A stretch of 51,936 nt of DNA. It comes from Phellopilus nigrolimitatus (Eukaryota; Basidiomycota; Agaricomycetes; Hymenochaetales; Hymenochaetaceae). Within the stretch, counting starts at the first letter, position 1, and each line of letters opens with the position of its first letter. This document shows, one piece after another, positions 2,496 to 28,538 of this stretch. Under the pieces are notes generated by a model. That model was not told the DNA's origin, did not search any database, and saw only the letters and a list, made by a program, of their open reading frames with translations. The translations under genes and the position numbers were made by a program. The DNA lies in contig JAJOHG010000178.1 in NCBI GenBank assembly GCA_021029095.1, positions 1-51,936 on the forward strand. The letters are read 5' to 3'.

Positions 2496-4657
2496 ATGAA
2501 GTTTCTCTACTCCTTGTGTTCGCTTGTCTTGCTTGCTGGTGTCGCAAGAACTCTCGTCGATTCGCCTGGACAGAGTGTATTCTCAACCAGCAGGCACGGG
2601 TGTGTGAAGCACCACCACTACACGGAATCGACTAACTATCTGATGTCTGGCATACCAGGTCTCTGGAACTTACGACCGTCTCGTCCGACCATTTTACGAC
2701 TTTCTCTCATCCTGCGTTCCCCGGCAGAAGTGCTCGAATTAAGAAATCCAACTTCTGCGACGGCAACGTCGCGTTCGTGTTGTTTCCGCCCTCGTCAAAT
2801 GCAGAATTCACCAATAATCTTCATCCTCGACAGCTCGTACACCGGATACATCGACGTTGGAGCCAAGCACCTTTTCTTTTATTTCTTCGAGAGCAGAAAC
2901 GACCCGGATAATGATGACGTCCTTCTGTGGACCAATGGCGGTATGTCTTCCACGTGCGTTTTGAGTTTTATTCATTTAATTCTTTCTGAAGGACCTGGCG
3001 GTTCGTCCTCAATGGGCCTCTTCTTAGAGCTAGGTCATTTCTCTAGATTTTTACGGTACTTGATGAAGGAAGCTAATGTCAAAATACAGGACCATGCAAT
3101 ATCGTTTCGCCAAACAGCACAGAATATAACCCATACTCATGGAATTCAAATGCGAACATATTCTTCATTGACCAACCTACTGGTACCGGATTTTCCTATC
3201 ACGAGTTCGGTGACATACCCGTACGCGACTTCCATCTGCTTACGCTCCTATTGAGCAGTCTACAACTGAGGAAGCCGGGAACGATATAGCACGATTCATT
3301 GCTGCTTTCTTTGAAACGTTCCCCAAGTTCAAGGGCCGCAACTTCCATCTGACCGGCGAATCTTACGCAGTACGTCCAATGTCCTAATTGAAGCCCGTTT
3401 AATATGATCTCGAATATCTCTAATCGACCTAGGGACGTTTCCTCCCCGTTTATGCCGCTGCTGTTTATGACCATAATGAAGTCCTCGTTTCAAATGGATT
3501 TACCCCGGTGAACTTAAAATCCGTCATGATCGGTAAGTATATTCTTGTAAATTGTTAAGTCAGGTTATCAACAGACGCCCATATAGGAAATGGGGCGACA
3601 GATTTCTTCTAGTGCGTTGACATTAAACGAATTATTTCCTCGTCTAAGGTCTATCTAGCCTCGTGCGTTCGTACTACGATATGCAATGCACGGCGGCATC
3701 GGTTGCGCCTGTTCAAACAATCAGGTACTTAATTTCAAACTTTTCAGAAGTACAGAATCCCGCTGATGGTAAATAGTGCGTGTGTCCGCATGAAGCAAAT
3801 CGTGAGTCCTTTCTCATTCATTGGAAGGCAAGTATGCATATCTGAAGCATTCCCTGAATATGTGCTTAAAGTTACCTCGCTGCGAGAGGTGGTCCAAGAA
3901 AGCTTGCATAGACCATTTCGACCTTATCGATTGTAACGCAGCGTTCAAATTCTGCTCCGAAGAGATGATGCCATATCTCGAACTTGGTACTCAACCCACC
4001 GCTCCTGTGAAGGAAGACCAGCGCTCATCGAAATTCAGGCTACAGCTACTACGACATGTCGAAGAAATGCGATACTAACACAGACTGCTACCCAGGACAA
4101 TTGTAGGTCATTCCGTTTTCTTGAATGATCTTACAGGACTAAATTTGAGTGGCAGTGATATTGTAGCCTACCTCGATTCGCCCGAGGTACGAAAGATGCT
4201 CGGGGTGGACCACGCATTCGGCAATTTTACCAATATCGCCATGGATGTGTACAACCGCTTCTGGGCAAGCGGCGACCCGCTGCACCAAACTCAATTGTAC
4301 ATCCCAGAGCTTCTTGCGCGCGGCGTGAAGGTGCTTATCTACGCAGGCACCTACGACTTCATCGCAAACTGGGTTGGAAACGAGCGGTGGACGCTAGACA
4401 TGGACTGGGCGAATAAAGAAGCATTCGCAGGCTCGCCGTTGACGGAGTGGTTCGTGAATGGGGAGCCGGCAGGGAAGACGAGGGCATATGGGAACTTTAC
4501 GTTCACGACAATTTATGGCGCGGGCCATTTGGTCTGTCTTTTGTGTTTATTCTTTTTTGATGGAATAGCTGATTACCTGCATTCGCAGGTTCCGCATGAT
4601 AAGCCTGTCGAGTCTTTGGAGATGCTAAAACGTTGGCTCGCAGAAAAGCCCATGTAA
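2496..4657 (+). pseudogene. Serine carboxypeptidase (peptidase S10), copy A, probably frameshifted
   Basis: Secreted or vacuolar carboxypeptidase family. The start encodes a signal peptide ([20 protein letters not shown]). About ten exons can be spliced and give family motifs in order: [68 protein letters not shown] followed after an intron by GRFLPVYAAAVYDHNE, CVRMKQI, and near the end GTYDFIANW and GAGHLVPHDKP. The catalytic Ser, Asp and His positions are therefore kept. The usual GGPGCSS has Gly in place of Cys. Compared with copy B there are indels at about 2605-2665; the last is a net one-base loss near 2655-2660 that puts the signal peptide out of frame with the body. Unless an unseen micro-intron repairs this, the gene is dead. 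Intron 4 has also shrunk to about 38 nt. Confidence 0.75.
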
Positions 4658-5999
4658 ATGTTTGCCTTCCGAGATTTTCGACTCTTCTGTTTGGCCAAAT
4701 CAAAGCTCCCTAACTCGAAGAAATATATGTACAACTACGCTATGCAACGTCTATCTACGCCGTTTGATCTCGAAGGGACTGTTCTTTGTCGAGTTCAGAA
4801 TTGGCCTGCAGCTATGTCCTATTTTGTCCTACCTGAGAGCTTCAAGGGCCGGAGAAAATGCGTATGCTTATGAGTCTTTTTTTCTTTCGAAGACCAGTCA
4901 ATCCGCGTAAAACCGATCGCATCGGTGTTTCGTCTTTTGAGAGCAAAAGTACCTCGAGGGATTGCGCAAGCCATGTCGCATATAGCGCAGCCGCCACGGT
5001 GTGTTGGATCTTTTTCACGAAGACGATGTCCCAATCGATATACTGGGTTTTCGAAGGGTCAAAGTCCTCACTTACATCCGGTTGCGGTAGCGGGCAAGCA
5101 CGAATAGGTTTGGCTAGCATTCGATCATTCAGCATCCCTCTTTGAATTTTCCTCGACTAACCAAGTCCCAAACCAGACCACTGTTCTCGCAGTAAAATCA
5201 TGTGCACCTATGTTGCATGTTGCAGGAAAGACCAACAAATGTTCTTCGATTCCTCTTTCTGTGTCATGCCGGTTGCGTACATCATCATGCTTTGACAACT
5301 CCCTCCTAAACTTTGTCTATTTTTGTAATCTAGGTATTCAGGAAGTGTTTTCTACTCGGGTCGTGCAACTCTCAGTGAGCCTGGTGTTCTGATTACCAAT
5401 GCACCAGTAACTGGCTCTACAGTCATAACCGTTGGGCATACTTTTGTGTCCTTGAGGATGTCTGCATGTATTGAAAGCTTATTTGCCGGTTGCGTGCCCG
5501 AGCAGAAGAGCTGGTAGCACAGAACAAAGCCATCATGCAGCATGAACATGTGCCCTGTATGTGACCAAGTGGCGAGGCAAAGTTGCAAACAGTAGTGATA
5601 ACTTTGTAACCATTGAGTAGCAATGTCACTGTATTGCCAACTGTTGATCTGATTATTTGCAATGCACATAATGATTATCATGCCACAAAGTTCCAGAGTG
5701 TAGCATAGAACAAACGTTATTCTCTGTTCTTTAACCCTAATTTTACAATTAAACTTTGAAGAATCCAGATAGGGGTAAAGGTAAAACAAAAATAGGAATT
5801 GGATCGCTGTGTAACATGTCACACTCACACTATGCATTCCAGCACGCAAAGGATGTGCGTTAGGACTTCCAGTTCGTTTGGTGCAGTGTGTACTATTTAA
5901 TGGGGGTGGACGGGTTTCTGGTACAATTTGTACTATCTCCTTCCTTTCTGTCTCCTCTCCTTTCACTCGTTTCACTGGCACGTTCCAATTCACTCGTTT
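4658..5999. other. Intergenic region between S10 and F-box genes, arm A
   Basis: Apart from the small antisense ORF at 4842-5135 nothing convincing was seen. The whole stretch aligns with 24924-26368 of arm B with indels and substitutions, as expected of non-coding DNA that diverged after duplication. Confidence 0.5.
4842..5135 (-). other. Small ORF antisense to the S10 3' flank, shared with arm B
   Basis: 97 codons open on the strand opposite the S10 gene, just downstream of it. The part EDFDPSK-QYIDWDIVFVKKIQH-VAAALYATWLAQSLEV is kept in frame in the other arm (25783-26124), and a third, more eroded DNA copy lies at 8885-9030. Differences between the arms include several amino-acid changes, so purifying selection is not obvious. 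It may be a relic exon of a gene once next to the S10 locus. No family was recognised. Confidence 0.25.
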
Positions 6000-8121: not shown

Positions 8122-8808
8122 TAGTGTTCTCAAAGGTCAGGTCGGGCCAGGTCAGAACACTTTTCCACCCGACCCTGACCTGGCCAGGTCGGGATTTTCT
8201 GAGTTTTAGCTGACCTTGACCTGACCCGCTGTGACCCGCAGCTGACCTGACCCAGCAGGTCAGGTCAGGGTCGACCCGGGGCCGGCCACCGACCTGCAAG
8301 TAAACATATTTTTTTCACAAAATGTTCACCAAAAAATATTTTATAGATGCCATTTTCACTTTATAAGACACTCATCACAATAAAATGCTAATACAAAAGT
8401 TCCCTTTTCTTGAGGAAGCTAGAAAGCCATATTCAACTTGGTGCAGCCTTAGCTTTGTAAGCAGTGACACAAAACTGCAAGTACCATATGCAGTATATTT
8501 GTCACAAAAGAACTTAAATTTATGCCTGGTTTAGGATAGTACATATCCGAGTGGACTTGGGTCGGAAAGTTCTCAAGCTTTCACAGCTTACAATATGCTC
8601 TTGTCTACCTCTCAAGTACTTCCGGGTCACGGGTCAGGTCAAGGTCGGTCGGGGGTCGAGGCGGGTCGGGAAATTCTGGCGGATGCTGACCTTGACCCGG
8701 CCCAGCAACGGCCCAGCTTGACCTGACCCGCTAGTGACCTGACCCGCGGGTCAGGTCAGTGGTCGACCCCGGGTCAGCACGGGTCTGACCCGGCCTTTGA
8801 GAACACTA
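8122..8808. mobile_element. Non-autonomous hAT-like element with 8-bp target duplication
   Basis: The termini are inverted repeats, TAGTGTTCTCAAAGG at the left and CCTTTGAGAACACTA at the right. The element is flanked by perfect 8-bp direct repeats GCGGGCGA at 8114-8121 and 8809-8816. An 8-bp duplication and short TIRs are typical of the hAT superfamily. Subterminal zones (about 8135-8290 and 8625-8790) are packed with GGTCAGGT / GACCTGACC motifs in both orientations, and the core is AT-rich. No transposase ORF is present, so it depends on an enzyme made elsewhere. Confidence 0.85.
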
Positions 8809-9750: not shown

Positions 9751-10792
9751 GAATCTGGAAATTCTATATAAACTTAAAATATTGCACTATAATCGTGCAC
9801 GTGACGTTTATTCGGATTTACATAAACAAGAATTCAAAATTACTGCAGGCCACACAACTCCTTCAAACTTTCGATATCAAAAATTCTGACGATGATTTGG
9901 ATTTGTTATAATAGTGCAGGAAGGCTGCTCTAATAACTGCATAAGAAGCGGTAGTCTGCTTGTCTGCCTATTCAAGTGGAAGATTTGATACTTGTTTACC
10001 TACGCATTTCCTACCATATATTTTAGATTCCCTTTATGATCTCCTTTTCCTGACTCGTAGTTATTGTCATCGTCAATCTCTGGATCTCCGAGGCCGATCG
10101 AGATCCTAGAACTAAACACATCACATGAAACTTGTGCACCAGCCACAACCGCCGAAACAGAAACGCTCGCTCTCATCGCTTGACAGCCTGGGATCGCCGG
10201 CACCCCGCATTGATATTCACAGGTACAGCATATATAGTATCTGCATTCATTCTGAATACACTCGGCTAGTTGTCAATTCATGTTTACATCTAAGAGCCTA
10301 CAGACAGCCTGATGGTGTCCTGACTTTTGATCCTGCAGGCTGCCTCTCAGTCGGACCGTAAAATTCACCGACCAGCCGCTATTCAGTCCCCGCGCCCAGT
10401 AATGCGCGCCCATCTATATCATAAACGTTTCGCAAACACGATGTCATGGTATCTTTATGGTTATACATTTAGTACAGCGTCCGAAAGAGTGTAGGACAGA
10501 TGAAGGAGTGGATGGTGGGGAAGTCGAGAAGTAAGTGCATGACCAAGATACGGAGATGACTACAGACAACAGTAGGTCTTTTGGAATACATAGACGCACA
10601 GAGTGAACATTCGGAGGGGAAACGGAGTAAAAGGAAGAGCGTGCCAGGCTTCCAAGACCATAAAAACACATAATGTTAGGTAGTCCGCGTCAATTGATTC
10701 GACAAGAGAACAAGGATAGACAGGAAAATTATAAATATTATACAGCGTGGCCGGTCTCAATGATTCTCGACACTTTAATCTGCGATGCAATG

Positions 10793-12328
10793 TTAGCGCA
10801 AAGCCACCGTGTCTGTAAACTTGCTTACAGAGTCGGACATCTCGTGGAGCTCGCTACCTTCCTTGTCCTCCGCGATCTCGTCCTCAAACGGGTGATACTT
10901 CCAGCCTCCATCCTCAGACCTCGGTTCGTAGTATCTCGCTGCCGACCCCGCAGAGAAAGAGCTTTCTGTTTGGTCGATGCTCCCTGTCGTCTCCATCTGC
11001 GAGATCGTCACTGTCACGGGCCGCGGCGGACGTGGGTAGTTGCGGTGGAGCGGGTTTTTCACGTTCGCCGTTGATGAATTTCGGTGCTGGCGGTCATGAC
11101 CACTGCCTTGACCGGCAGCAGCGAATGTAGATAGCATGGCGTCAGAGCTGTAGGTCACAGCATCTGTGGAGAGACCGAGGCCAACGCGGACTATGATCAG
11201 AGAGAACACAACGCCCTATACAGGGGTTAGAAACGTAAAAAAACACGTTCCAAAAGAAAAGGGGCTTACTATGACTTGAGTGACCCCATCAAGAACGATG
11301 TACTGTGCGAAGCTGCCACTCAGATAGAGCGAAAGCAATATGATGAGACAAGCAGAATAGGCGGAGCCGGACTCGATGATGATCATCGCCGCTGGGAAAA
11401 CGCTCGGTCCGGCTCTCACGGCGCCCTGCAGCCTCCTATGAATCCAGAAGATGCGCGCAGCGATAAGAACTATGTAAACGAGGCCATAATTAGTCAACAT
11501 TTCTGGGGTCGGACGGGAGAGGACTAACGGGTGCAGGAAAAGTTCGTGAAAAGCGTAAGTGAAAAGAATGAGACGATCCAGTCCTGAAGCTCGCTGATGA
11601 ATACTGGGGCGGTCGGGGAGGCCCGAGCGAAGCCTTGTAGCGCCCCAATGCCGACACCTTGGCACATCAGTCAATTCGAGAAAGTAAGAAGGCGAGAAAT
11701 GACCGACTCACCTATACTTGCGATGAAACAGATGAGAATTGGTCCGTATATACGCTTGTCTCCCGAGTAAATCAGGTATAAGCGATAAAGCTAACAAGCC
11801 CGCGTCAGCAAGTAATTCAAACTTGAAGTGAAAAGAGGGTGGTAGAAAAAGATACGCACCATGAACCCATCCCCAACCAGAGTCTGCATGCAGTACGCCG
11901 TGCTTTTGAGTGCATATATGGGCGTGTTGACCATAGACAAATATTTCACTGTGTTTTCTTCGTCCAAATATGCGGTGAGCACTCTTCGGAGATCTGCCGC
12001 AACGTGCTGGCAATAGTTAGGGAAAAAGTCTTGGTAAGAGCCGGGATTAAACGTGGATGGTTTTAGCGTGGACGCACCACGGTAGCGAGGATGAACATGA
12101 CGATCGAGACGATCAACATGGGCCTGTTGACGTGCTCATTCTTGCCCTTCTTTTTGAATAGCAGGACATAGACTGATAATGAGAACAAGAACGTGAAGAA
12201 CCCTACTCGTCCGAATCAAATGTGAGCTTTGCAAAAATATAGTTAACGGTTGCTGAATCCTGCTCACCATATAACACACACTCTACGAAGATGGAAACGA
12301 GCGTCACCTCGTCGATGCCGATGGCCAT
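10793..12328 (-). CDS. Seven-helix membrane protein, basidiomycete orphan family
   Basis: About six to seven exons starting MAIGIDEVTLVSIFVECVLYG. Spliced segments give about seven hydrophobic helices, including FFTFLFSLSVYVLLF, MLIVSIVMFILATV, LYRLYLIYSGDKRIYGPILI, MLTNYGLVYIVLIAARIFWI, SAYSACLIILLSLYLSG and GVVFSLIIVRVGLGLS. A hydrophilic C-terminal tail of about 110 residues follows. The YRLYLIY element after helix 3 and the RIFW element after helix 5 are typical of a large, functionally unassigned family in Agaricomycetes with receptor-like topology. It sits on the left edge of the candidate peptide cluster, transcribed in the same direction as the MFS and precursor genes; membership in the cluster is unproven. 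Confidence 0.75.
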
Positions 12329-13677
12329 GGCCGCTAAATAGAATCGAAGGAAGGGGAAGGAGGAAGAGAAGGTTAAAAAAAAGGTGTGAATACGGTGCTA
12401 CTTTTTAAGAAACCGCTGCAGCGCCTTCAAGCGCGGTTCCTTTGATAGTGCGATCGTCTTCTTCCGACCGCTTGTGACGGCAAACAACCCCAATGTCAGT
12501 TATATCCGCGGTTTACATGAGGCGCTTGGAGACGGTTGCGTAAGCCGTGTCCGCCATATCGGAGGAAAATCACAAGATGGCATCACAGCATCAAGATATA
12601 AACGCTGAATCATGCATGCACGTATGTGAGATCGATTTGAGCGCTGCTTGAACAGTGAACATTTGAATGTGCTTCTTGTCGCTGCTTTTCCCGCCATATA
12701 CATGCGTTCGCTTTGTCAGGGACGAGCGGAAGCAAATCTGTGTCGTTTCATCTTCTCTCTTTCTGACCGAAAGGGAAGAGGAGACAAGAAGATTCTGTAC
12801 AGTAGTATACGGCTTTCCTCCGCCGAGAGAGAAGGAAACGGGCATTGATCCTCTTTGGTCTCGGTGGAATCAAACGGAGACACTACCGCCACGATGATTA
12901 GCCTTACTTTCCTTATCACTTCTCTATCAAAGGATGATCTTCTGTCCGTGGCTAGGCTTTTCCACGTGCCTCGGAGTCCCGGAAAGTGGGAAGTCGTAAA
13001 TTCCGTAAGCCTGAAAGACAGGCCACTCAGATTTCTCGCTTGCGACCCTTTGCTGTAGATTATGTAGTTCAAATACTGAAATGAAGGGACGTTACGAGCA
13101 GTCATGAGCAGGGTTGAAGGTAGATCAGGGGCTAAAGAGCATAAAAGTCTAACTTTCGCGCTCTCAGTCTTGCGTGTCGAACCGTGTCAAGCTTTGCTCG
13201 CTCGATCATGACGTTGATCGTTCCCGCGACCTTCAAAACAGTTCCCATCCGAATTCGTTCAAGGTTACTTGCTCAGAATCCGGGTTGAAACATCTTCATT
13301 GTTGGGAACAAGACCTTGGCCTTCTTTGACACAGGCTTCCACAAAGCAGGTAGCCAAAGTGGGTCCGGACACGAAAAGAAAACACCCTAGGCTCTGAACG
13401 ATAATGCATTCAGATAGGCTTCCGTCTTGCTGGTACCTGCAGAGATCGCATCGAACGGCCATTCCCATGGCTGTCTTCCATCAAACAAGTTCTCCCATGA
13501 AGACTCCCCCTTGTCTCCGCCCATGAAAATTATCGGGATACATTTGTAAATACACATATACATACAGATTCTACGGGCTTGCCAGAAATGAGCATCGGAT
13601 AACGAGAGCAATTTGCATGTGAAATTTGTAGACTCATTATCTTGTCCAATAGCTTACTGATGTCTATCGCACTGCGC
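12329..13677. other. Intergenic region, nothing recognised
   Basis: 1.35 kb between the seven-helix gene start and the MFS gene stop, both on the minus strand. It should contain the promoter of the former. Open frames here are short, overlap each other on both strands and match nothing known. Confidence 0.4.
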
Positions 13678-15838
13678 TCACCGTCCCTCAGGCTTGGCAT
13701 CTTCTTTATGCCGCGAGGAGAGCCACCCCGCGACCCCTAGTGCAAACGCGCCCGCACACATGCACACCTATTGAATGTGAGAATATCGTGTGTTCAATGA
13801 GATATCCCGAACGCTCGAGTGGTTGCATCAAAAAGACAGAAGAAAAGGCACGCACTCCACAGAAAACAGCAGGCCTGACCCAGAGGTTCTGCGATGTCAA
13901 AAGCGCTCCTGTGATTGGCGGGCCTACAGAACGAACAAGGTGCATTGTTAGAGTTACCCTCATCAAGAGAAGAGAAGAGCATGAAAAAACGATAGGTTGA
14001 TCCAAGAGCATACCTATCAAACTTCCAATTCCTAAACAATCCGATCCGAAAAGAACGCGACAGTGAGTATACCTCCGTGGAAAGGGCCCGGAGAATCACG
14101 CACCGCCAATACCGAAGCACACGCCAATGCGTGCTCTACATCAAAAAAGAGGGGGAGAAACGACGGAGGTTGGTTGAGTATCGCGCAATTATCAATCTTC
14201 AACTCACCCTACTTCCGATACATTTTTCGAGAGGTTGGCAAGCATGGGCCCGAGGAGCGAGATGCCTATATACCCGAGAACAAATTCGGAAGTGAGCTCC
14301 TCTCGTTTGGATACACAACGCGAAGGAGGATATAATCGGCACGCACATGCTCCGGAGAAAAACCCATATAGGACGGCCATGACTACGCTGCCTGCCGCAT
14401 CGGTGACGGCGACCATGGAGAAAATGAGCACACCACACGCGAGCGTGCATGGCACGATGAGATTAAAGACGCCCGTTCGGTCGACGATGATCGTCGGTAG
14501 AACCCGACCGAACGCGCTCGAACCGTTGAGGATTGCAAGCTACAAGCTCAGTGAGTTCAGCGCATTCTGTAACCAAAAGCCAGGTCCACCGACCGTGTAG
14601 AACGCGAGGGTTTGGTCTACGCCGTGATCGACCGCATCGAGTTGGAGGTAGAAGATGGGAAAGAATACGGCGGTGATGAGGAGGAACGTGCCGGCCGCCG
14701 CGACGACGTATGTCCGGTCCTTGAAGAACACACGCCAGTACGCGATCTGGTGCGACAGCTTCTTGCTCTGCGGGGGCAAGCGCGTCGTCATGAGCGCGTT
14801 CGCGACGGCGAGTAGCGCGAGATTAAGGAACGCGCTACAGCGCACGCCCCAGGCGAAGCCGAGGCTGCCGTGGATGAGCTTGTTGAGCATGATTGGGTGG
14901 ACGACGCCCCCAAGCGAGGATGCGGAGGCGACGACGCCCATCACGAGCGAGCGCCGCCGCTTGAAGTGGTGGGCGACGACGCCCAGAGCCGGGACGTATG
15001 TCGATCCGATGGCGATTCCGAGTCCGATGCCTTGAGCAAGGAAGAGCTGGTATAATGCAGTTAGGACGCGCATTAATTTGGCTTCGCAGGACTAAAATAT
15101 ATAACTGACCTGGTACCATTTCTGTGGTTGCGAGATAGAAATCATGAAGAGACAGAAGACAAACAATACTGATCCCGCGAACATGACTTGACGACTGGAA
15201 TGAAATAACCAGTTCTACGGATATAATGCAAGGATTGGTTTTCACTGACAAGTAGCCGACATCCATGGCATATCCAGAAAATATTCCAATGCTGAATAGA
15301 CAGAAAGTCTGTGCACTTCCGATCCAGCTTGATATCTTTCTTAGTATTGAACCATTCATCAAACACGAGAGGAGCTACCTAATCGCTGAGGATGATGAAT
15401 GGTTGAGGTATTCGCGGACATAAAAGTCTAGTCGTTTCAAAGTTAGTCTCTGAATGATTCGGAATTCTGCTGAGCAGCACGCACCTTCGTAGACACCGAA
15501 ACTATTCACATAGCTATATTTCGTGCTAGTCAGCGCCCGATGCTCCCATGCTCTCCAAAACGTCAGCACTTGCCCAGATGTACAGAACACGACTAGATAT
15601 CTGCGGATGAGCCAGGGTCAGTCATTCCTCAGGATAAGTGTGCGTCCGTGACTACTCACGCGCCCACCAGCGTCGACCAGGCCTGCCACCCGCCGTCAGG
15701 TATCACGACCTCCGCTGCTGAAGGATGTGGACGTTTCGCCTCCATGTCGTCAGCAGATTTTTCGTCCAACCCTTCAGCGCCCCTCTCAAGCTCTCGAGCG
15801 CTAAGGGTATCGACCGAATCGCGTGGTGAGGAATCCAT
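13678..15838 (-). CDS. MFS transporter, monocarboxylate-transporter (MCT) type
   Basis: About nine exons splice to an uninterrupted MCT-type permease. The N-terminal tail is acidic, and PDGGWQAWSTLVGA marks the first helix, the hallmark of fungal MCT-like proteins. Then come YVNSFGVYE, SSAISWIGSAQTFCLFSIGIFSGYAMD, GLGIAIGSTYVPALGVVAHHFKRRRSLVMGV, VRCSAFLNLALLAVANALM, GRVLPTIIVDRTGVFNLIVP, SLLGPMLANLSKNVSEVGARIGVCFGIGGIGSLIGPPITGALL and a final helix before SSRHKEDAKPEGR. The start at 15838 is the first ATG before the acidic tail. Members of this family are often found as exporters or importers in fungal secondary-metabolite loci. Here it lies immediately downstream of the repeat precursor on the same strand, so an export role for the mature peptide is a fair inference. 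Confidence 0.88.
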
Positions 15839-16325
15839 GGTCGTCGTCGGCAGCGTCTTGCAGTCACCTAGCGCAGGATGTAAAAACCGCAATCAGCATG
15901 GAGTGTCAGGGTTTTATACCGGTTCCCCCATTGCTGTGATCTGTGCTTCGTAAATTAGGCGTGCTTGGACATCAACTAAATGCGATCGGAATCTTCTGAT
16001 AAGTACGGCGCTAGCGGCCCCTTGAAGGTATCATGTTCAGAGTACAAAACATCAATTCAAGCACATGTATGCATGTACCGGCCCTAAACAGCGGCCGCTA
16101 CTCGAATTTCGAAAACATAGTATTCTCTACGCAAATACTTCGCTTTCTTCCCGGGAACCATCAGGATCCCAGCCTAGAGCTACAGAGAATACATACCCGC
16201 TTGGGAAAACATTCCAGACACGAATAAAATTACAGAACAAAGGCATGATCATCCGATCCAATGTTAGCCATTTTCCGAGCTGGACGGCCGCGCTCCTGAG
16301 AAAACACTTCTTGCACTGAACCGGC
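15839..16325. other. Intergenic region between MFS and precursor
   Basis: 487 bp that must contain the MFS promoter and the precursor 3' end. No coding potential was recognised. Confidence 0.4.
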
Positions 16326-17326
16326 TCATGCCCTGAAGTCCTTCTCCAGCTGTGAAGGCTCACGCTTGAAGTCCTTCTCGAGGTCTGAGCTCAGCATCAG
16401 TACAGCGCCTCGCAGAAGATGAACCGTAAAGGATGCTCACCATTCCTCTTGAAGGACTTCTCGAGCTGGGCAGGTTCGCGCTTGAAGTCCTTCTCCAACT
16501 CTCCACGCTTGAAACTCTTCTCGAGCTGGGACGCCTCGCGCTTGAAGTCCTTCTCTAACTCTGAACATATCGTTAGGGCGTAGCTCTCATCGAGAAACAA
16601 AGGCGACTTACCGTTCCTCTTGAACGATTTCTCGAGTTGCGTGGGTTCGCGCTTGAAGTCCTTCTCAAGCTCGTTGCGCTTGAAGCTCTTCTCAAGCTGA
16701 GTCGGCTCGCGCTTGAAATCCTTTTCCAACTCTAGAGAACCATCAGTACGGAACTCTTATTGGATAGCGAAGACAACTTACCATTCCTCTTGAAGTCCTT
16801 CTCGAGTTCTGAGCGCTTGAAGTCCTTCTCGAGGTCTCCGCGCTTGAAATCCTTCTCGAGTTCTGGATTACGTCAATATACAGCTTTCAAAAGGTGGCGG
16901 AGACGTGGCGACTCACCATTCCTCTTGAACGATTTCTCAAGCTGCGTAGGTTGACGCTTGAAGTCCTTCTCGAGCTCCGAGCGCTTGAAACTCTTCTCCA
17001 GTTGGGAAGGTTCGCGCCTGAAGTCCTTCTCGAGCTGAGAAGGCTCGCGTTTGAAGTCTTTCTCGAGCTCGGAGCGCTTGAAATAATCCTCGAGTTTGGA
17101 AGGCTCGCGCCTGAAGTCCTTTTCGAGCTCAGAGCGCTTGTACCCGTATTCGATGGATTCTGCATTTCCGCTCAGTTCGATACAATATACGCGATCGAAA
17201 AAGACGATGCATACCGGAACGCTTGAAGCTCTTCTCGAGCTGCAGACCGTTAGCCTCGGGCACCGGGCTCGCGAGGACGGTGGTCGCGAGGAAGAGCGCG
17301 GCGGCTAGGAACTTGAGGTACTGCAT
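16326..17326 (-). CDS. Kexin-processed repetitive precursor peptide (candidate RiPP precursor)
   Basis: Six exons (17215-17326, 16917-17159, 16782-16862, 16612-16731, 16441-16560, 16326-16384) splice to 244 aa. A signal peptide (MQYLKFLAAALFLATTVLAS) is followed by PVPEANGLQLEKSF-KR. The remainder is cassettes ending in an aromatic residue and a dibasic kexin site (21 sites): class I, 11 copies of (S/N/G)(E/D)LEKDF; class II, 9 copies of (E/Q)(P/A)(S/T/A)(Q/K)LE(K/D)(S/D/Y)F; and a single SESIEYGY next to the leader. KR is used throughout except for two RR, and the last cassette ends in RA before the stop. All five introns are phase 1, and internal exons are 243, 81, 120 and 120 nt, so each can duplicate without shifting the frame. 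Secretion, kexin cleavage and carboxypeptidase trimming are inferred. An unmodified secreted repeat peptide (repellent-like) is the alternative; the adjacent ustY genes favour a modified peptide. Confidence 0.88.
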
Positions 17327-18550
17327 GTTGAAAGAGGAACGCGCGGGAAAGTGTCGAGAGGCGAGTGGGCTGAAGGATGGGAAGGACCTTGTCCTTTACT
17401 CTTTGGCTTCCGGATCGCCTGACCTTTTAAGCAAACACGCTCAAAGACATCGATCGCCAATTTCCTGGCTGATAGCTCGCATATGCTATTACCTATTCAC
17501 GTGGCGACCGTATCGTCGCGTATATGTGCAGGCGCTACCGGCTCCGTAGCGCTTGCTCGTCCGTGATCATCTTTGCAGAGGCTACAGCTAGTCCTTACTT
17601 TTCGGAGGTAACGATCCATCAGAGCACGCCTTTCTCTGCTGATATCTCATTGTTGTTTTCGAAGATGAGAGCAGTTCTACACCTCGTGCGCGCGCGCACC
17701 GCCACTCATGGCTGTGAATGAATTGTAATAGCGCTCAGCGCACATAGAAGTCGGGAAAGAGCGGTGCGGAGGCATTCTGGACTACGTGCAAATTCTTTCC
17801 ATCAGATCCAAGAGAAGAGGATAATTGGCTGAAGGCTTGCTTGCCTACTTGGCATGAGCTGGATTATCAAAACTGCAATATCAAAATGGTTTGAAGAACG
17901 AATAAGCGAAAAGAGGAGCAGGCTCAGCAGAGAGCGGGCGAGTCGCCGATGTGTGATTTACGTGCTGCATTTCCTTTCTGGGCCGCCGACGTGCCGATCC
18001 TCCGTTATCATATCTACCTTACGTAGATCTAGCGTTACACGTTCCGCAAGGCTGTGTAGCGATCGTGGACAGGTTGACAGCTGAACTTAACGTCTATCTG
18101 CCCTCGTGGCGTCGTTTGTGGCTGCAGAGCGATTGCTTGACAAGACCAGTATCCTGTTCATATCCAGTCAAACATTGCTTTGATTTGACGAAAGCATGCA
18201 AGCATGGCGAGTAAAGGCGAGTTCACGAACTGCGATGATATCGCGCAACCGATGGGGGAACAACCCCAACGTTGCTGCGTATTTTAGCCTGTGTCTGATC
18301 TTGGTCGGCCGATTGATGCAGCTGTTCGCATAAACGATGTACGTACATGTACATATTAAATTGTCCATGGACCACGCGCCGCGCTGCTTAACCCGCCCCG
18401 CGTAAACCACTTGGACAACGGTCCGAGATCACTCTCACCTACCGACGAAATGCTTCGAGGGTCTGCATTCACAATCTAGATCGTGAAGTTGCAGAAACCA
18501 GCTTTTCCCCAGCTCTGCGACTAGAACTGTCCTCCCCGTTCGAGCCCGCT
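17327..18550. promoter_or_regulatory. Divergent control region between precursor and ustYa-like gene
   Basis: 1.2 kb between the two ATG codons on opposite strands, so the precursor and its presumed modifying enzyme could share control. No gene was seen in it. Confidence 0.5.
17423..17430 (-). promoter_or_regulatory. TATA-like box of the precursor gene
   Basis: TTAAAAGG on the minus strand, about 97 bp upstream of the precursor ATG, at a plausible distance. Assigned by position and sequence only. Confidence 0.35.
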
Positions 18551-19324
18551 ATGCTCGTGAAGCGCGACACTTTCTGCGAGGTGCTCATCGTGCTCTGCGC
18601 GGTGGTCAACGCATACCTCTTTGCGGGCCGCATCTGGCGCTCATACTCCTACGCGTCTCTCAAGCACACAGAGTCGGACGCCTATAGTAAGCACCACTTT
18701 TCGTCTTACCCGCGCGCTGGTCTCACAGATGCCCTCGTCGCCTCAGCATACGCCGGCGACGACTACCCGGAGCACCTCCCGCTCCCGCAGCCCGCACGGC
18801 CCGCAGCGCCCATCTCCTTCTCGCTCGCGCCCGACGCGTTCCCGATCTCAGGCCCCGGCGCCGCCGCACAGTGGGCGTCCATCTACCCGCCGGGGTACGG
18901 CTTCGTGCGCATGGGACGCGCCGCGCGCCTGCTGTGCGTCGCGCAGTTCCACCAGCTGCACTGCGTCGAGAAGATGCGCATCTACCTCGACGACCCGCTC
19001 GGCGCGGGCGCGCACCTCGGCTTCGCGCACCAGCAGCACTGTATGAACTACCTGCGCCAGCTTTTCCTGTGCGCCGCGGACCGCACGCTCGAGCCGCTCG
19101 CGCCGCGCGACGTCGTGCTCGCCGTGGGCCCGGACGGCGGCGTGGACCTCGACGAGAAGCACGATCTGGCGACGCGCAGCGGGCCGGGCGTTACGCATAT
19201 GTGCGGCGACTCGAAAGCGCTGTACGAATTCGTGGGCGATAACTATGTGAATTGGAAGGCGGCGTGGAATATCAGCTCGCCGTTCGACGCCGAAGGCGAT
19301 GAACACGCAGGCCATATCCATTAG
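18551..19324 (+). CDS. UstYa-like oxidase (DUF3328 family)
   Basis: Up to 257 aa. A hydrophobic segment near the N-terminus (VLIVLCAVVNAYLFAG) anchors the protein in the membrane. The DUF3328 signature is complete: HQLHC at residues 134-138 and HQQHC at 160-164, followed by MNYLRQLFLCAADRTLE, and later THMCGDSKALYEFVGDNY. In ascomycetes UstY proteins carry out oxidative cyclisation of kexin-released RiPP cores, with the two HxxHC motifs essential (family knowledge). The gene diverges from the precursor across 1.2 kb. A 42-nt stretch at 18687-18728 starts GTAAGC and ends CACAG; it may be a very short intron, whose removal keeps the frame and joins SDAYN to ALVASAYAGDDYPEHLPL. Its GC-rich codon use is stronger than in most neighbours. 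Substrate is inferred from location. Confidence 0.88.
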   Translation: MLVKRDTFCEVLIVLCAVVNAYLFAGRIWRSYSYASLKHTESDAYSKHHFSSYPRAGLTDALVASAYAGDDYPEHLPLPQPARPAAPISFSLAPDAFPISGPGAAAQWASIYPPGYGFVRMGRAARLLCVAQFHQLHCVEKMRIYLDDPLGAGAHLGFAHQQHCMNYLRQLFLCAADRTLEPLAPRDVVLAVGPDGGVDLDEKHDLATRSGPGVTHMCGDSKALYEFVGDNYVNWKAAWNISSPFDAEGDEHAGHIH

Positions 19325-19522
19325 AAGCTTTTTATGTATATGTATGTGTAAAGACGAAGCGAGGTACCATAGCTCATCTTCGATGACTTCGATTTTTGCG
19401 TACTAGGATCTGATGAATTAGTTGACAGGCATGAGAGGAATTGAATGAATTGATATAGCGATTCCTCGGAGACAAGTACAGCGAGCAGGCAGTCGTTAAT
19501 ACTAAGATACACTATACCCTAT

Positions 19523-20682
19523 TCATATCGAGGGCTTCTGCACAATCGTAATGGCTTGGGGGAAAAAAAGACAGTCAGATCACACCCGAAGAAACCCGCC
19601 AGGGAAAAACGCCGACTCACCCATCCGCGGCGTCGTCTCGGGCTGCTCCTGCCAGAACTCGACGGCGCACTCGTCGGCGGCCTCCGTGGGGCACGCGAGC
19701 TCGAACATACGCAGCGTGCCCGTGCGCCCGCACGCGAACTCTGCGCTGTGCGCGCGGTGGGCCTGCTGCACGACGAGGTTCGAGAGCAGCGCCGTGCGCG
19801 CGGGGCGCGTCGCCCACGCGAGCCGTCGCGTGTCGAGCTCGCCCGCGGACGCATCGAGCTCCCACACCTCGAGGTTCACGAGCTCACGCGCGAGGGACAG
19901 CGTGCGGTTCTGCGCGTGCAGCAAGGCAGGATCGGGCATGGCGCTCGCAAGGGAGCAGCGCCCGAGATTGTAATCTTGCACGCGGACCTGCATGATCATC
20001 GATACCTGTGGTTCGCGAATCCAGCGCCGGCGCACATGCCAATTTAGAAGCCAGTAATCAAGCCAGAAGAATGTCAGAGCATGAGAAAGCCATTCGCTGG
20101 GGAGCGGAAGAAGGAAGCGCGGGCTCACGTCTTTGTTGATGATCACATGCGGCTCGCCAGGGGAAACGAGCCCGTTGAATGTGATGCGTGCGCGCCCGTC
20201 GCTGGGGAAGACACGCTCGGGCTCCGCGCGGCTGACGGGCGCGAACACGTGTGGGAAGATGTGGAGTGCCTCCGGGAGCGCGTCCCGCGCTGTGTCCCGG
20301 TCGACGCGGTCGAGCCCGATGTACATGTTAGGCCGATACAGCGTGTTGGCGCGCGCGAGGCGTTCAGCGCGTGTGGGGACATGGGGGGAGGGTGCGAAGG
20401 CGCTTGAGGGGACGAGGTGCGGGAAGACGATGTTGAGCACGGCGAGGAAGAGCGCCGCGGCCGAGCAGATTTGGACCCATAGGGGAGCGGGCTTTGAGGA
20501 CTTGGTCGTAGCTGGACAAACAGTAGTAAGTATGGTAAGGCACAAGGCGCGGGTGCTCTAGACTCACCTGCATCATACGAGTCGGGGTCGTCGATGAAGA
20601 CCTCCCCGTCGCCATCGAGTGACTTGCGCTCGTGCGCAGCGTCGTGAGTCGGCAGCAGCGAGTATTGCTCGTCCGTCGACAT
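19523..20682 (-). CDS. Single-pass membrane protein of unknown family
   Basis: Four exons give roughly 310 aa. An acidic cytoplasmic tail (MSTDEQYSLLPTHDAAHERK) is followed by one membrane helix (VQICSAAALFLAVLNIVF), then a long luminal part with RPNMYIGLDRVDRD, ITFNGLVSPGEPHVIINKD, VSMIMQVRVQDYNLGRCSLASAMP, a Trp/Glu-rich middle and CAVEFWQEQPETTPRM. The ending was taken as ITIVQKPSI with a stop at 19523; another acceptor would change only the last residues. Proteins of this layout occur in Agaricomycetes without an assigned function. The single-anchor topology is the same as for UstY proteins, and the gene lies between ustYa and ridA, so a role in the same secretory-pathway step is possible but unproven. 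An alternative start lies 9 nt upstream. Confidence 0.75.
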
Positions 20683-20691
20683 TGGTATCAA

Positions 20692-21385
20692 TCCAGCTTT
20701 AGCAGAGAGGAAATTAGATTGATACCATCCTCAGTGCTCACAGCTCAATCCCCCAAATGGGACGCATGTAAGTAGATCATAGCATCTGATGATGGCAGGC
20801 TGGTCGCATCTGGTTCTTCGGGTGATCGGAGGCAGAATGATGGTAACGATGTGCACGCTTAGACAGTCGAGCCGGGATGTACGGCCTCAACGATGCGGTA
20901 CGCACGGCGCGGCTTGTGGAAGAAATTATGAAGCCGCCACCGCTACCATAGACCCATTCGGACTACGCCTGCGTGCTTCATATGGTATACCGTCAGCTAT
21001 ATGTAATCATTCAATATGTCAAACGTGTACCATAAAGCACTCAATCATCTCGTTTTTCACCCGCAGTAGAAATTCGCAAATGTGACGAACATGGAAAGGA
21101 CATGCATTGCAAAGTCAATGCAAAGCTTACCTTGAATTACACCTGATAATTGCCTTGTCAAGCATTAGCGAATTCCAGTATAGCTAGGCTCGCCGCCACT
21201 TCGAAAGCGCTCGGACAGTGGCGGACGGTGGCGGCGGTCGGACTCACGGCAATTCCCCTTGTAGACTTTCCTAGCTATATAACACCAGTGCTGAAAGAAA
21301 TTCCTTCTCATTACCCCGCCCAAAGTCCTTGCTCACGAGCCTATAGTGTAGCTCCTAGCTTATCATTCTCTAAGTACTGCACAAA
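20692..21385. promoter_or_regulatory. Divergent intergenic region
   Basis: About 0.7 kb between the start codons of the membrane-protein gene (-) and the RidA gene (+). No additional gene or clear core promoter element was recognised. Confidence 0.35.
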
Positions 21386-21898
21386 ATGCCGGAATTTGTC
21401 TACACCAAGGACGCGATCCAGCCCATGGCTGTCTTTTCGCAGGCGGCGATATCAGGCAAGCATGTCTTCGTATCTGGAAACATCGGCTGCAAGAAGGACC
21501 TCAGTGGCCTTGTGTCGGGGGACGTGAAGGAGCAGACGGTGCGCGCGATACGCGATTCTACCTTAGCTCTCTAATGACACCCATCTAATCCTGATTATAC
21601 AGAGAGCGGCGTTGAAAAACATAGAGGTCGTCTTGAAAGCGTCTGGATCCGGGCTGGAGCACATCGTCAAGGCGAACTGCTACCTGAAGAATATGGACAG
21701 GGACTTTAAACCTATGAACGAAGTTTATATAGACGTGCGTAATATTCTTCCCGTCGTCTTCGTGGCTTGCTGAGACCTGATGGCCATCTCGTGCAGTTCT
21801 TTGAAAAGGGCAAGATGCCCGCTCGTACGTGTGTCGGCGTCGCGAGTCTGCCATTGGGCGCTTCTGTTGAGATCGAGTGCATCGCAGAGATCCCTTAG
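21386..21898 (+). CDS. RidA / YjgF-YER057c-UK114 family protein
   Basis: Three exons give about 130 aa, the normal size of this trimeric family. It begins MPEFVYTKDAIQPMAVFSQA and contains HVFVSGNIG, EQT joined to RAALKNIEVVLKASGSGLEHIVKANCYLKNM, and RTCVGVASLPLGASVEIECIAEIP at the end. The Arg of RTCV matches the conserved Arg that contacts the substrate carboxylate in RidA proteins. Classical members hydrolyse reactive enamines and imines. In the cluster it could remove or act on an imine formed during oxidative peptide modification; equally it may be a housekeeping gene caught between cluster genes. Confidence 0.9.
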
Positions 21899-22201
21899 CA
21901 GCTTTTAAGTCGCCAATGAAGTCTGTAGATCCGTTGTAAAACAGCTTGTTGTAAACTAACTGCGACGGCGAGACGAGACGAAAGAATGAATGATTTGACC
22001 AACGTCTGCAAAACTGAAGCTGTAATCCGTTGCTTTCTCCATTTCCCAGACCGTCAGAGCTACATTTTCTGTACACCCGACCTACATATTAACATTTACA
22101 CATTTTTCACGGAGCTCAAGACGACCTGCCATATCTCGCGGGTTTCGATCAATAATAAATCCAATGTCGAGACCTGTCGGCCAGTTTGAAGTCGTTCAGT
22201 A

Positions 22202-22889
22202 TCAGACCAGCATCTCGGGCCGCGCGTCCAGCTCCTCCCGCGCCCACTTGTCGAAGTTTTCCTCCGCCGCGCCCCACACCTGCTCCCAGTCCGCGCAGTC
22301 CGTGCGCGTCGTGTACGGCAGCACCGCGCGCCCGCCGTACTCGCTGCGCACCATCTCGAGGTGCGCGTCCGCGGCGCACACGATCGACTCGCGCAGGTAG
22401 TTCAGGCAGAAGTGCGCGCGCGCGCCCGGCGGCGTCGCCGGGTCGTGTGCGCGCGCCATCACCTCCGCGCGCACGACGCCGAGGCACTCGAGCTGGTGAA
22501 ACATCGCGAGGCGGAAGGGCCGCCCGTCGACGTGCACGACGCCCCGCCCGCGCGGCAGCGCGGACGCCCACTCCGCCGCGCCCGCGGCCGTCTCGAGGCG
22601 GTAGTGCACGCTCTCTTCGGGTGTCAACGCTGCGTTGCGCAGGCCCTCGACCGGCCAGACCTCAGGAATACCACCCTCTTCTGTGTATAAATATAAGAAT
22701 GACAGACGAGCGCAATATTGCGCGAAAACACTCACGTTGTGCGTTGGCTTGTCTGCGGTGGAATCGCGACAAGACCGATGCAGTATCTGCGTCCGAGAGG
22801 AGGTTGAAGAGGGTGAAGAGAGCGACCACCGCAGCGAGCACGGCACGGTTCTGCGAATGGCGTTTGATGAAGGCGGACGTGTTCACCAT
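22202..22889 (-). CDS. UstY-like protein (DUF3328 family) with altered metal-binding motifs
   Basis: Two exons give about 210 aa: a membrane anchor (VLAAVVALFTLFNLL), then EVWPVEGLRNAALTPEESVHYRL, a typical UstY entry segment, and FRLAMF leading to the motif region. The first motif reads HQLEC (residues 113-117) rather than HxxHC, and the second reads RAHFC (139-143) before LNYLRESIVCAADAHLE. Key His residues are therefore missing from both, while the surrounding fold signature is kept. It may be a UstYb-type partner or a paralogue of altered function. The start codon lies at the edge of inverted-repeat arm B, and a decayed version of the same start is visible at 8012-8090. Confidence 0.85.
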
Positions 22890-26368: not shown

Positions 26369-28538
26369 TTACATGGGCTTGTCTGCGAGCCAACGTTTTA
26401 GCATCTCCAAAGACTCGACAGGTTTATCATGCGGAAGCTGCGAATGCAGGTAATCAGCTATTCTATCAAAAAAGAATAAACACAAAAGACAGACCAAATG
26501 GCCCGCGCCATAAATTGTCGTGAACGTAAAGTTCCCAAATGCCCTCGTCTTCCCTGCCGGCTCCCCATTCACGAACCACTCCGTCAGCGGCGAGCCTGCG
26601 AATGCTTCTTTACTCGCCCAGTCCATGTTTAGCGCCCACCGCTCATTTCCAACCAGTTTGCGATGAAATCGTAGGTACCTGAGTAGATAAGCACCTTCAC
26701 GCCGCGCGCAAGAAGCTCTGGGATGTACAGTTGTGTTTGGTGCAGCGGGTCGCCGCTCGCCCAGAAGCGGTCGAACACATCCATGGTCATATTGGTAAAA
26801 CTGCCGAACGCATGGTCCACCCCGAGCATATTTCGTACCTCGGGCAAATTGAGGTAGGCTACGATATCACTGTCATTCGATTCTAAATCCTGTAAAAACA
26901 TTCCAGAGATCAAAATCACCTACAATTCTAGTGGGAGCAGTCTTTGTCTGTGTTGCATTTCTTCGACAGGTCGTAATAGTTGTAACCTATATTTCGATGA
27001 GCGCTGGCCTTTCCTAGCAGATGAGTGAGTCGAAGTACCAAGACTGATATATGGCATCATGAGCTTTTCATTGCAGAAGTCGAACGCTGCTCTACAGTCG
27101 ATCTGATCGAAATGGTCTATACAGGATTTCTTGGACCACCTCTCGCAGCGAGGTAACTGCAGGTATAAGAAACGCTTGAGATACGCGTAATCAATCTCAA
27201 AGGAGCGAAAGGCAACTAACAATTTGTTTCATGAGGACACACGTACTAAAGGTCATCAGCGAAAAGTTAGAGTCGTCCTGGTTTATTAAGGAGATACCTA
27301 ATTTGCTGAATAGGAGCAATCGATACTGCCGTGCATTGTATATCATAGTAAGAGCGTAGGAGGCTAGATGGATGTAAGATAAGGATTTATTTCGTTGAAT
27401 GGCAACGCACTAGATCTGTCGCCCCATTTCCTACCTCGGCATCAGTTGCCAACTTGGTTCAACATTTATAACGTACATATTCTCACCTATCATGATTGAT
27501 TTCAAGTTCACTGGACTAAACCCCTTCGAAACGAGCATTTCGTTCTGGTCATGAACAGCAGCGGCGTAGACGGTGAGGTATCGTCCCTAGATTAAAGATC
27601 TCAATGTCCAAGATCACTTTCAGTTGATAAGTGGGACGTACTGCGTAAGACTCGCCAGTCAGATGTAAGTTCCGACCCTTGAACTTGGGGAACGTCTCAA
27701 AGAAAGCAGCAATGAATCGCGCGATATCATCTCCGGCTTCCTCAGTTGTAGACTGCTCAATAGGAGCGTAAGTAGACGCCATGAATTATAATCAGGTCAT
27801 GTACGGGTATGTCACCAAATTCGTGATAAGAGAATCCGACACCGATAGGCTGGTCGATGAAGAATATGTTCGCATTTGAATTCCATGAGTATGGGTTATG
27901 TTCTGTGCTGTTCGGCGAAACGATATTGCATGGTCCTGTACTTTGACATTAGCTTCCTTCATCAAATATTGCAAAATGGTATTTGAAGAAAAAAAAAACC
28001 CCTAGTTCTAAGAAGAAGCCCATTGACGACGAACCACCGGGTCCTTCAGAAAGACTTTAACGAGTAAAACCTAAAACACGTATGGAAAACATACCGCCAT
28101 TGGTACACAGAAGGACGTCATCATTATCCGGATCACTTTTGCTCTCGAAGAAATAAAAGAAAAAGTGCTTGGCTCCAACGTCCATGTATCCGGTGTACGA
28201 GCTGTCGAGGATGAAGCTATATTGGTGAATTCTGCGTCTGAGGAGGGCAGAAACAACACGAACGCGACATTGCCATCACAGAAGTTGGATTTCTTTATCC
28301 GAGCATTTCTACCGGGGAACGCAGGATGGGAGAAAGTCGTAAAATGGTCGGACGAGACGGTCGTAATTTCCAGAGACCTGATATTGTCAGAAGTCAGATA
28401 GTTGTCGATTCCGTGTAGGCGGTGCTTCACACACCCATGCCCGCTGGTCGTGAACACGTTCTGTTCAAGTGAGCCGACAAATGCTCTTGCGACGCCAGCA
28501 AGGAAGACGAGCGAGTGCAGAGTGTAGAAAAAGTTCAT
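26369..28538 (-). pseudogene. Serine carboxypeptidase (peptidase S10), copy B, damaged
   Basis: Signal peptide MNFFYTLHSLVFLAGVARAF, then an open first exon through [11 protein letters not shown] with no equivalent of the copy A frameshift. GGPGG, SSMGFFLELG, GTYDFIANWLE and GAGHLV are still visible. Lesions differ from copy A: the donor after FFLELG, GTCATT in copy A, is replaced by GGGTTTT with a T-run (about 27990-28006), and 5 bp are lost in the short exon near 27414, after GNGATD, changing the splice phase. Copy B is thus probably also non-functional. Confidence 0.7.

What the first reader, a model, noticed from the sequence alone, without database searches (positions are those of the whole stretch)
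13678..22889. Basidiomycete UstY-type RiPP cluster with an unrelated repeat precursor
Seen: a signal-peptide precursor of about twenty kexin cassettes next to two DUF3328/UstY proteins, an MCT-type MFS transporter, a single-pass membrane protein and a RidA protein. Known: precursor plus UstYa/UstYb defines dikaritin pathways such as ustiloxin, phomopsin and asperipin, all from ascomycetes. Inferred: the block makes modified short acidic peptides ending in Phe. The cores (S/N/G)(E/D)LEKDF and (E/Q)(P/A)(S/T/A)QLEKSF resemble none of the known dikaritin cores I can recall.
Basis: partly seen in the sequence, partly recalled or inferred. Interest (0 to 1): 0.95.

Follow-up and report, generated by a model that had tools for sequence, protein, structure and literature searches.

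The report
Modified-peptide cluster with built-in receptor
A wood-decay fungus carries a gene cluster encoding a secreted protein of about twenty repeated short peptides, enzymes predicted to modify them, and a membrane protein predicted to fold like yeast's peptide-pheromone receptor that would likely sense them, which gives a testable peptide-and-receptor pair.

Summary
The window (Phellopilus nigrolimitatus, Hymenochaetales, inferred from protein names and contig lengths) has a 244-aa, six-exon precursor with 19 Kex2-bounded cassettes, two UstY genes, an MCT-type transporter, a single-pass membrane protein and a RidA protein. KEP-UstY pairs in basidiomycetes are already in print, so that part is not new. 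New here: (1) 8 of 8 nine-residue cassettes begin XP/XA (an alpha-factor-type STE13 signature) and 0 of 11 seven-residue ones do, so trimming would give one heptapeptide family x(E/Q/D)LEK(D/S)F; (2) the cluster reaches left to a seven-helix membrane-protein gene (10793-12328) whose predicted structure ranks Ste2, the alpha-factor receptor, first in two structure comparisons, though tied with other GPCRs; (3) that gene, precursor, transporter, UstYa and RidA recur, reshuffled, elsewhere in the genome; relatives of the gene sit at 3 of 3 KEP+UstY loci (two independent) and on 3 of 6 UstYa contigs over 10 kb from other fungi. Best reading: a UstY-modified, alpha-factor-like peptide with its own candidate receptor. 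No expression, product or binding data. Modification about 0.8, receptor about 0.4.

The parts
10793..12328 (-). gene X: seven-exon, 387-aa membrane protein with seven predicted helices and a predicted GPCR-like fold; candidate receptor
   Evidence: exons join to one clean ORF; NCBI protein P0014 99% identical; AlphaFold core residues 1-260 with block pLDDT 79-98, 7 helices; Ste2 ranked first in Foldseek and VIA; co-duplicated
13715..15838 (-). MCT-type MFS transporter (approximate ends)
   Evidence: PF07690 54.5 bits; 8 of 8 PDB hits are MCTs; duplicated at C555/C109, 79% nt identity
16326..17326 (-). KEP precursor: signal peptide, 19 dibasic-bounded cassettes plus one terminal, 6 exons
   Evidence: allele intact; paralogue at C555/C109
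18551..19324 (+). UstYa (a-type), N-terminal TM, HQLHC and HQQHC motifs, intron 18687-18746
   Evidence: PF11807 39.5 bits; motifs; NCBI homologues; dN/dS 0.19 against its paralogue, exon 2
19580..20682 (-). single-pass membrane protein, weakly But2-like (307 aa, 3 exons)
   Evidence: PF09792 22.7 bits, below cut-off 24.2; one TM; 3 of 3 non-allelic copies found in the genome lie beside a UstYa/UstYb pair
21386..21898 (+). RidA/YjgF-family protein (128 aa, 3 exons)
   Evidence: PF01042 121.9 bits; paralogue beside UstYa at C555/C109
22202..22889 (-). UstYb (b-type), N-terminal TM, HQLEC and RAHFC in place of HXXHC, intron 22735-22681
   Evidence: PF11807 49.9 bits; motifs; b-type clade of three loci, support 98/97, long branches

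Best explanation
The block encodes a secreted alpha-factor-like repeat precursor, UstY oxidases predicted to modify its peptides, a transporter, and a membrane protein predicted to have seven helices that is likely the peptides' own receptor. Proposed order of events. Shown by sequence: signal-peptide-like start, dibasic sites, XP/XA dipeptides on the nine-residue cassettes only. Inferred: Kex2 cuts after KR/RR, a Kex1-type carboxypeptidase removes KR, and a Ste13-type dipeptidyl peptidase removes EP/EA/QP, so both cassette types converge on heptapeptides x(E/Q/D)LEK(D/S)F. Inferred: UstYa, perhaps with UstYb and the single-pass protein as partners, oxidises the heptapeptide in the secretory pathway; the favoured site is a link from the invariant C-terminal Phe7 to the invariant Leu3, by analogy with victorin. 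Inferred: RidA clears or uses an imine/enamine intermediate and the MCT-type carrier handles product or precursor. Inferred: gene X, whose predicted fold is nearest to Ste2, senses the secreted peptide. My odds: Kex2 processing 0.95, dipeptide trimming 0.7, UstY modification 0.8, receptor role of gene X 0.4.
Confidence: 0.5

Rival explanations
1. An ordinary basidiomycete dikaritin-like toxin or defence-peptide cluster: UstY-modified product, exported; gene X is a bystander or a self-protection/transport protein and no sensing takes place.
For: KEP plus UstY plus MFS is the known dikaritin layout; known dikaritins are toxins; gene X family is large; the cluster has an MFS carrier.
Against: Gene X relatives occur at 3 of 3 KEP+UstY loci and 0 of 4 other UstY loci fetched, and share a contig with UstYa in three other genera; the predicted fold ranks receptors first; the STE13 signature is typical of alpha-pheromone-type, not of known dikaritin precursors.
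Confidence: 0.35
2. A linear alpha-pheromone-like secreted peptide; the UstY genes act on something else or are neighbours by chance.
For: STE13 signature; mushroom KEP peptides detected so far are linear or minimally modified (PMC9769878); almost no Tyr in the cores.
Against: UstYa stays with the precursor after duplication and reshuffling and an unrelated KEP also sits beside UstY genes; purifying selection on UstYa.
Confidence: 0.12
3. The second locus is only a segmental duplication, so the grouping says nothing about function.
For: Both copies are in one genome and share five genes.
Against: Order and orientation changed while the five stayed within about 11 kb, dS 0.64; an unrelated third cluster has much of the same cast; shared contigs in other genera.
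Confidence: 0.08

Closest known systems
Dikaritins (ustiloxin, phomopsin, asperipin-2a, victorin)
   Same: Signal-peptide precursor with Kex2-bounded repeated cores next to UstY/DUF3328 genes and a transporter; victorin is also linked through a C-terminal Phe and an internal Leu (PMC9233826, passage).
   Different: Basidiomycete; STE13 dipeptides on 8 of 19 cassettes; Tyr in only 1 of 19; UstYb without HXXHC; no tyrosinase or methyltransferase among the 25 window proteins or ORFs scanned; extra single-pass protein, RidA and seven-helix gene.
Basidiomycete KEPs with STE13 signature (PMC6339444, PMC9769878)
   Same: Same precursor design; peptides of this type were detected in Pleurotus.
   Different: Those detected are linear or minimally modified; in the passages seen, one paper only speculates about receptors and the other does not use the word. 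Here the precursor has UstY genes and a candidate receptor beside it. PMC7329392 found DUF3328 near 17 of 76 KEPs of the basidiomycete pheromone type.
Yeast alpha-factor and Ste2
   Same: Repeat precursor with Kex2 and Ste13 sites; the cluster's seven-helix protein has Ste2 as first-ranked structural match.
   Different: No match to STE2 or STE3 profiles (0 of 60 family members at E<=0.01); ligand and candidate receptor genes are clustered here; peptides predicted to be oxidised.

Membership tests
Kex2-processed repeat protein (KEP) | signal peptide plus tandem repeats bounded by KR/RR | tested here: met
   (hydropathy only for the signal peptide)
Dikaritin cluster | KEP-type precursor next to at least one DUF3328 protein with two HXXHC motifs | tested here: met
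   UstYa HQLHC and HQQHC
Dikaritin cluster | second UstY also with two HXXHC motifs | tested here: not met
   UstYb HQLEC and RAHFC; the other b-types read HALEC/RQHFC and HQLQC/LTDHC
Dikaritin, ustiloxin/phomopsin subgroup | conserved Tyr in the core | tested here: not met
   1 of 19 bounded cassettes has Tyr; victorin, counted as a dikaritin, is linked through Phe
Dikaritin cluster (first definition) | tyrosinase and methyltransferase nearby | tested here: inconclusive
   none among the 25 window proteins or ORFs scanned with Pfam; 136 stop-to-stop ORFs of at least 100 aa were listed
Dikaritin | oxidised or cyclised product | not testable with these tools
   needs mass spectrometry
alpha-pheromone-type precursor | STE13 signature XP/XA after the Kex2 site | tested here: met
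   8 of 8 nine-residue cassettes, 0 of 11 seven-residue ones
Class D GPCR (Ste2) | seven transmembrane helices, GPCR-like fold | tested here: met
   predicted model only
Class D GPCR (Ste2) | match to the STE2 profile | tested here: not met
   0 of 60 members at E<=0.01; genome-wide PF02116 search found nothing but no control rang
Class D GPCR (Ste2) | binds a secreted peptide and couples to a G protein | not testable with these tools
   needs experiment
But2 C-terminal domain protein | score over the PF09792 cut-off | tested here: not met
   22.7 bits against 24.2

The most novel reading that the evidence does not exclude
A self-contained peptide-signalling module of mushroom-forming fungi: an alpha-factor-type precursor gives oxidatively modified (probably Phe-Leu linked) heptapeptides that are read by a co-clustered, Ste2-fold receptor of a family without any Pfam name, and the module recurs with unrelated peptides at other loci and in other genera, each with its own receptor.
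Probability: 0.33. Interest if true: 0.92.

Novelty: new variant of a known kind. Interest (0 to 1): 0.76.

Why it matters
Alpha-factor-like precursors in basidiomycetes are a recorded puzzle: these fungi mate with a-type pheromones, and the authors who found the precursors asked which GPCRs could sense them (PMC6339444, PMC9769878, passages). This cluster offers one named precursor, one named candidate receptor and the enzymes between them in 12 kb, plus a second unrelated cluster with much of the same cast as a specificity control. If true, a large unannotated family of membrane proteins of mushroom-forming fungi would include peptide receptors, and UstY chemistry, known mainly from toxins, would also serve signalling.

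Tried and rejected
Considered and rejected or set aside. (1) Pfam hit CtsR on the precursor: no stretch passes alone; taken as a repeat artefact. (2) UstYa structure: AlphaFold with 13 rows gave pLDDT 48.8, pTM 0.26; not used. (3) Precursor homologues in the protein collection: none at E<=1 among the 7994 candidates scored; the query is repetitive and the species' own protein was not found either, so this says only that the gene seems unannotated there. (4) UstYa relatives in viral contigs: none. (5) Kex2 repeats at the C334:1.41M, C334:437k, C334:504k and C101 UstY loci: none accepted within the stretches fetched; the scan flagged low-complexity stretches in L016 (near 960, TQKTS/KQKTS before RR) and L011 (Arg-rich), which I set aside by eye without further test. 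(6) Tyr-centred linking: set aside because 18 of 19 bounded cassettes lack Tyr. (7) Wzy_C_2 and similar weak Pfam hits on gene X: below cut-off or in single members, ignored. (8) A transporter or other role for gene X is not excluded by the fold list; adiponectin receptor and rhodopsins also match. (9) Paper searches: UstY+basidiomycete+kexin, DUF3328+Basidiomycota+RiPP, Kex2/STE13 set, UstYa+HXXHC+copper (30, none), UstYa+mushroom, Phellopilus nigrolimitatus, victorin set, dikaritin+basidiomycet, But2+UstY, KEX2+GPCR+Agaricomycetes (106, none). In the listings and passages seen there, no KEP-UstY-seven-helix cluster was described; only open-licence papers are held, and of the seven opened (PMC7329392, PMC9769878, PMC6339444, PMC8893723, PMC10410303, PMC12048977, PMC9233826) I read passages only.
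Full report
WHAT IS THERE. The window lies in a 56.4-Mb, 635-contig genome. UstYa and gene X return NCBI proteins of Phellopilus nigrolimitatus on contigs of 221,050 and 1,255,752 bases, the lengths of C457 and C555 (99% identity for gene X, 89% for UstYa with the query still holding its intron), and a table row for this species lists 56.7 and 344,575 (column headings not seen), the latter being the length of contig C279 (PMC10410303, passage). It is a saprophytic, wood-decay basidiomycete of the Hymenochaetales. C457 carries the allele of the window, 97-98% identical.

THE PRECURSOR. Six exons join to 244 aa with a signal-peptide-like start. Splitting at KR/RR gives a leader, one odd segment (SESIEYGY), 19 bounded cassettes and a last one ending in RA-stop. 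Eleven cassettes have seven residues and eight have nine. All eight nine-residue ones begin EP, EA or QP; none of the seven-residue ones has P or A at position 2. Taking the last seven residues, Leu3, Glu4 and Phe7 are invariant in 19 of 19, Lys5 in 18. XP/XA after the Kex2 site is the STE13 signature of alpha-type pheromones (PMC6339444, PMC9769878, passages). The simplest reading is that both cassette types are trimmed to one heptapeptide family. Between the alleles the precursor differs at three residues (pN/pS 0.32), one being S to D inside a cassette, a variant already present in others.

THE ENZYMES. UstYa is an intact a-type with HQLHC and HQQHC. UstYb is over the PF11807 cut-off but reads HQLEC and RAHFC; the b-types at C334:1.41M and C401 also depart from HXXHC, and the three b-types form a clade (98/97), with a warning about long branches. 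The single-pass protein (weak But2 match, under the cut-off) has three non-allelic copies found in the genome and all three lie beside a UstYa/UstYb pair; conversely all three a/b pairs have it. RidA and an MCT-type carrier complete the block. Allelic pN/pS: UstYa 0.22, UstYb 0.20, single-pass 0.08, RidA 0 on one difference.

THE CLUSTER IS LARGER THAN DESCRIBED. BLASTN of the whole window against the C555/C109 stretches finds matches for five genes: 10697-12368, 13715-15865, 16436-17434, 18550-19329 and 21386-21898 (two short matches at 8122-8294 and 8611-8808 besides, probably repeats). In C555 the order is precursor(-), gene X(+), MFS(+), UstYa(-), RidA(+), in the window gene X(-), MFS(-), precursor(-), UstYa(+), RidA(+). 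They have stayed together through rearrangement; UstYa exon 2 has dS 0.64, dN/dS 0.19. The copy lacks UstYb and the single-pass gene in the roughly 40 kb fetched, and its precursor has lost some Kex2 sites, differently in its two alleles, so it may be decaying or changing.

DOES GENE X BELONG? In this genome there are seven non-allelic UstY loci (17 matches, grouped by me). Three hold a KEP: the window, its duplicate, and C401/C169, where an unrelated KEP (four cassettes ending DLKKLMDF) sits with UstYa, UstYb, the single-pass gene, an alpha/beta-hydrolase and a seven-helix relative. A profile of the gene X family hits only these three among 5890 ORFs of the loci fetched by then; no hit at the four UstY loci without KEP (8 to 20 kb seen at each) or at the KEP without UstY (C97/C279). 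The window and its duplicate are one event, so this is two independent cases. Against it, C401 has a second gene X relative at 58.8k with no UstY or KEP of its own. About a dozen family places were seen in the genome (lower bound); with 8 to 40 in about 28 Mb, a random 20-kb stretch would hold one with probability 0.006 to 0.028. Whether those loci hold a KEP could not be tested, because no fungal genome other than this one was open to search.

MECHANISM. Shown: gene content, cassette pattern, conservation, linkage. Predicted: gene X fold. Inferred: Kex2 and Kex1 release, Ste13-type trimming (kexin-like and DPPIV-like genes exist), UstY oxidation, receptor role. The chemistry guess, a link from Phe7 to Leu3, rests on invariance of these two residues and on victorin, described as cyclised between its C-terminal Phe and an internal Leu (PMC9233826, passage). 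Caution: the KEP without UstY (DAAPLSDTF) also has Leu and Phe. RidA proteins act on imines and enamines (general knowledge; PDB names), which would fit an oxidised intermediate.

WHAT IS KNOWN. Umemura's survey found DUF3328 genes near 103 of 1680 basidiomycete KEPs and near 17 of 76 KEPs of the basidiomycete pheromone type (PMC7329392, passages). Pleurotus has 16 UstYa-like genes, 6 of them developmentally expressed (PMC8893723, passage). So KEP+UstY in a mushroom is a new member of a known in-silico kind. Le Marquer and colleagues state that STE13 is not predicted to process ustiloxin/phomopsin-type precursors and speculate that GPCRs for STE13-type KEPs exist (PMC6339444, passages). In the ten paper searches listed under Tried and rejected I saw no report of the combination found here. 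Hence 'new variant of a known kind', with a bolder reading if gene X proves to be the receptor.

LIMITS. Gene models are by splice-site reading, checked against NCBI proteins for UstYa and gene X only. The signal peptide was judged by hydropathy. Counts of family members in the genome are lower bounds. No expression or product data were available.

Noticed in passing
window 2832-4537 (+) and 26489-28203 (-): Two serine carboxypeptidase (S10) genes flank the cluster on either side, also in the C457 allele; Kex1 is of this family (recalled), so either might trim the peptides, but they are not among the duplicated genes.
   Followed up: partly
L012 (C401:41000-50999) and allele L013 (C169): Second, unrelated KEP+UstY cluster: four cassettes such as EEDEDLKKLMDF, an alpha/beta-hydrolase, UstYb, single-pass protein, UstYa and a seven-helix relative of gene X.
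   Followed up: partly
L034 (C401:56001-60900): Further copies of the hydrolase (56462) and of the gene X relative (58799) about 10-12 kb from the C401 UstY genes, without a UstY or KEP of their own found.
   Followed up: partly
L016 (C334:1407500-1417400): UstYa, UstYb and the single-pass gene as a tight triad; no KEP accepted and no gene X relative in about 20 kb.
   Followed up: partly
L027 about 4600-5050 (C97) and L028 (C279): A KEP with cassettes DAAPLSDTF (STE13-type DA) and no UstY or gene X found nearby; useful as a control.
   Followed up: partly
C401:43251, C401:56462, C101:264924: The alpha/beta-hydrolase of the C401 cluster has three non-allelic copies found, two of them within about 2 kb of a UstY match and the third about 10 kb away.
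   Followed up: no
L019 4755-5087 (C334:504k) and L020 (C252): A b-type UstY-like fragment with an in-frame TAG in both alleles, probably a relic.
   Followed up: no
window 21386-21898: In the RidA protein the Tyr of the GPYSQA stretch seen in the best PDB match reads Phe (AVFSQA), so its activity may be altered.
   Followed up: no
window 35900-36385 (-) and 48055-49452 (+): A GMC-oxidoreductase exon and an alcohol-acetyltransferase-like ORF further right in the window.
   Followed up: no
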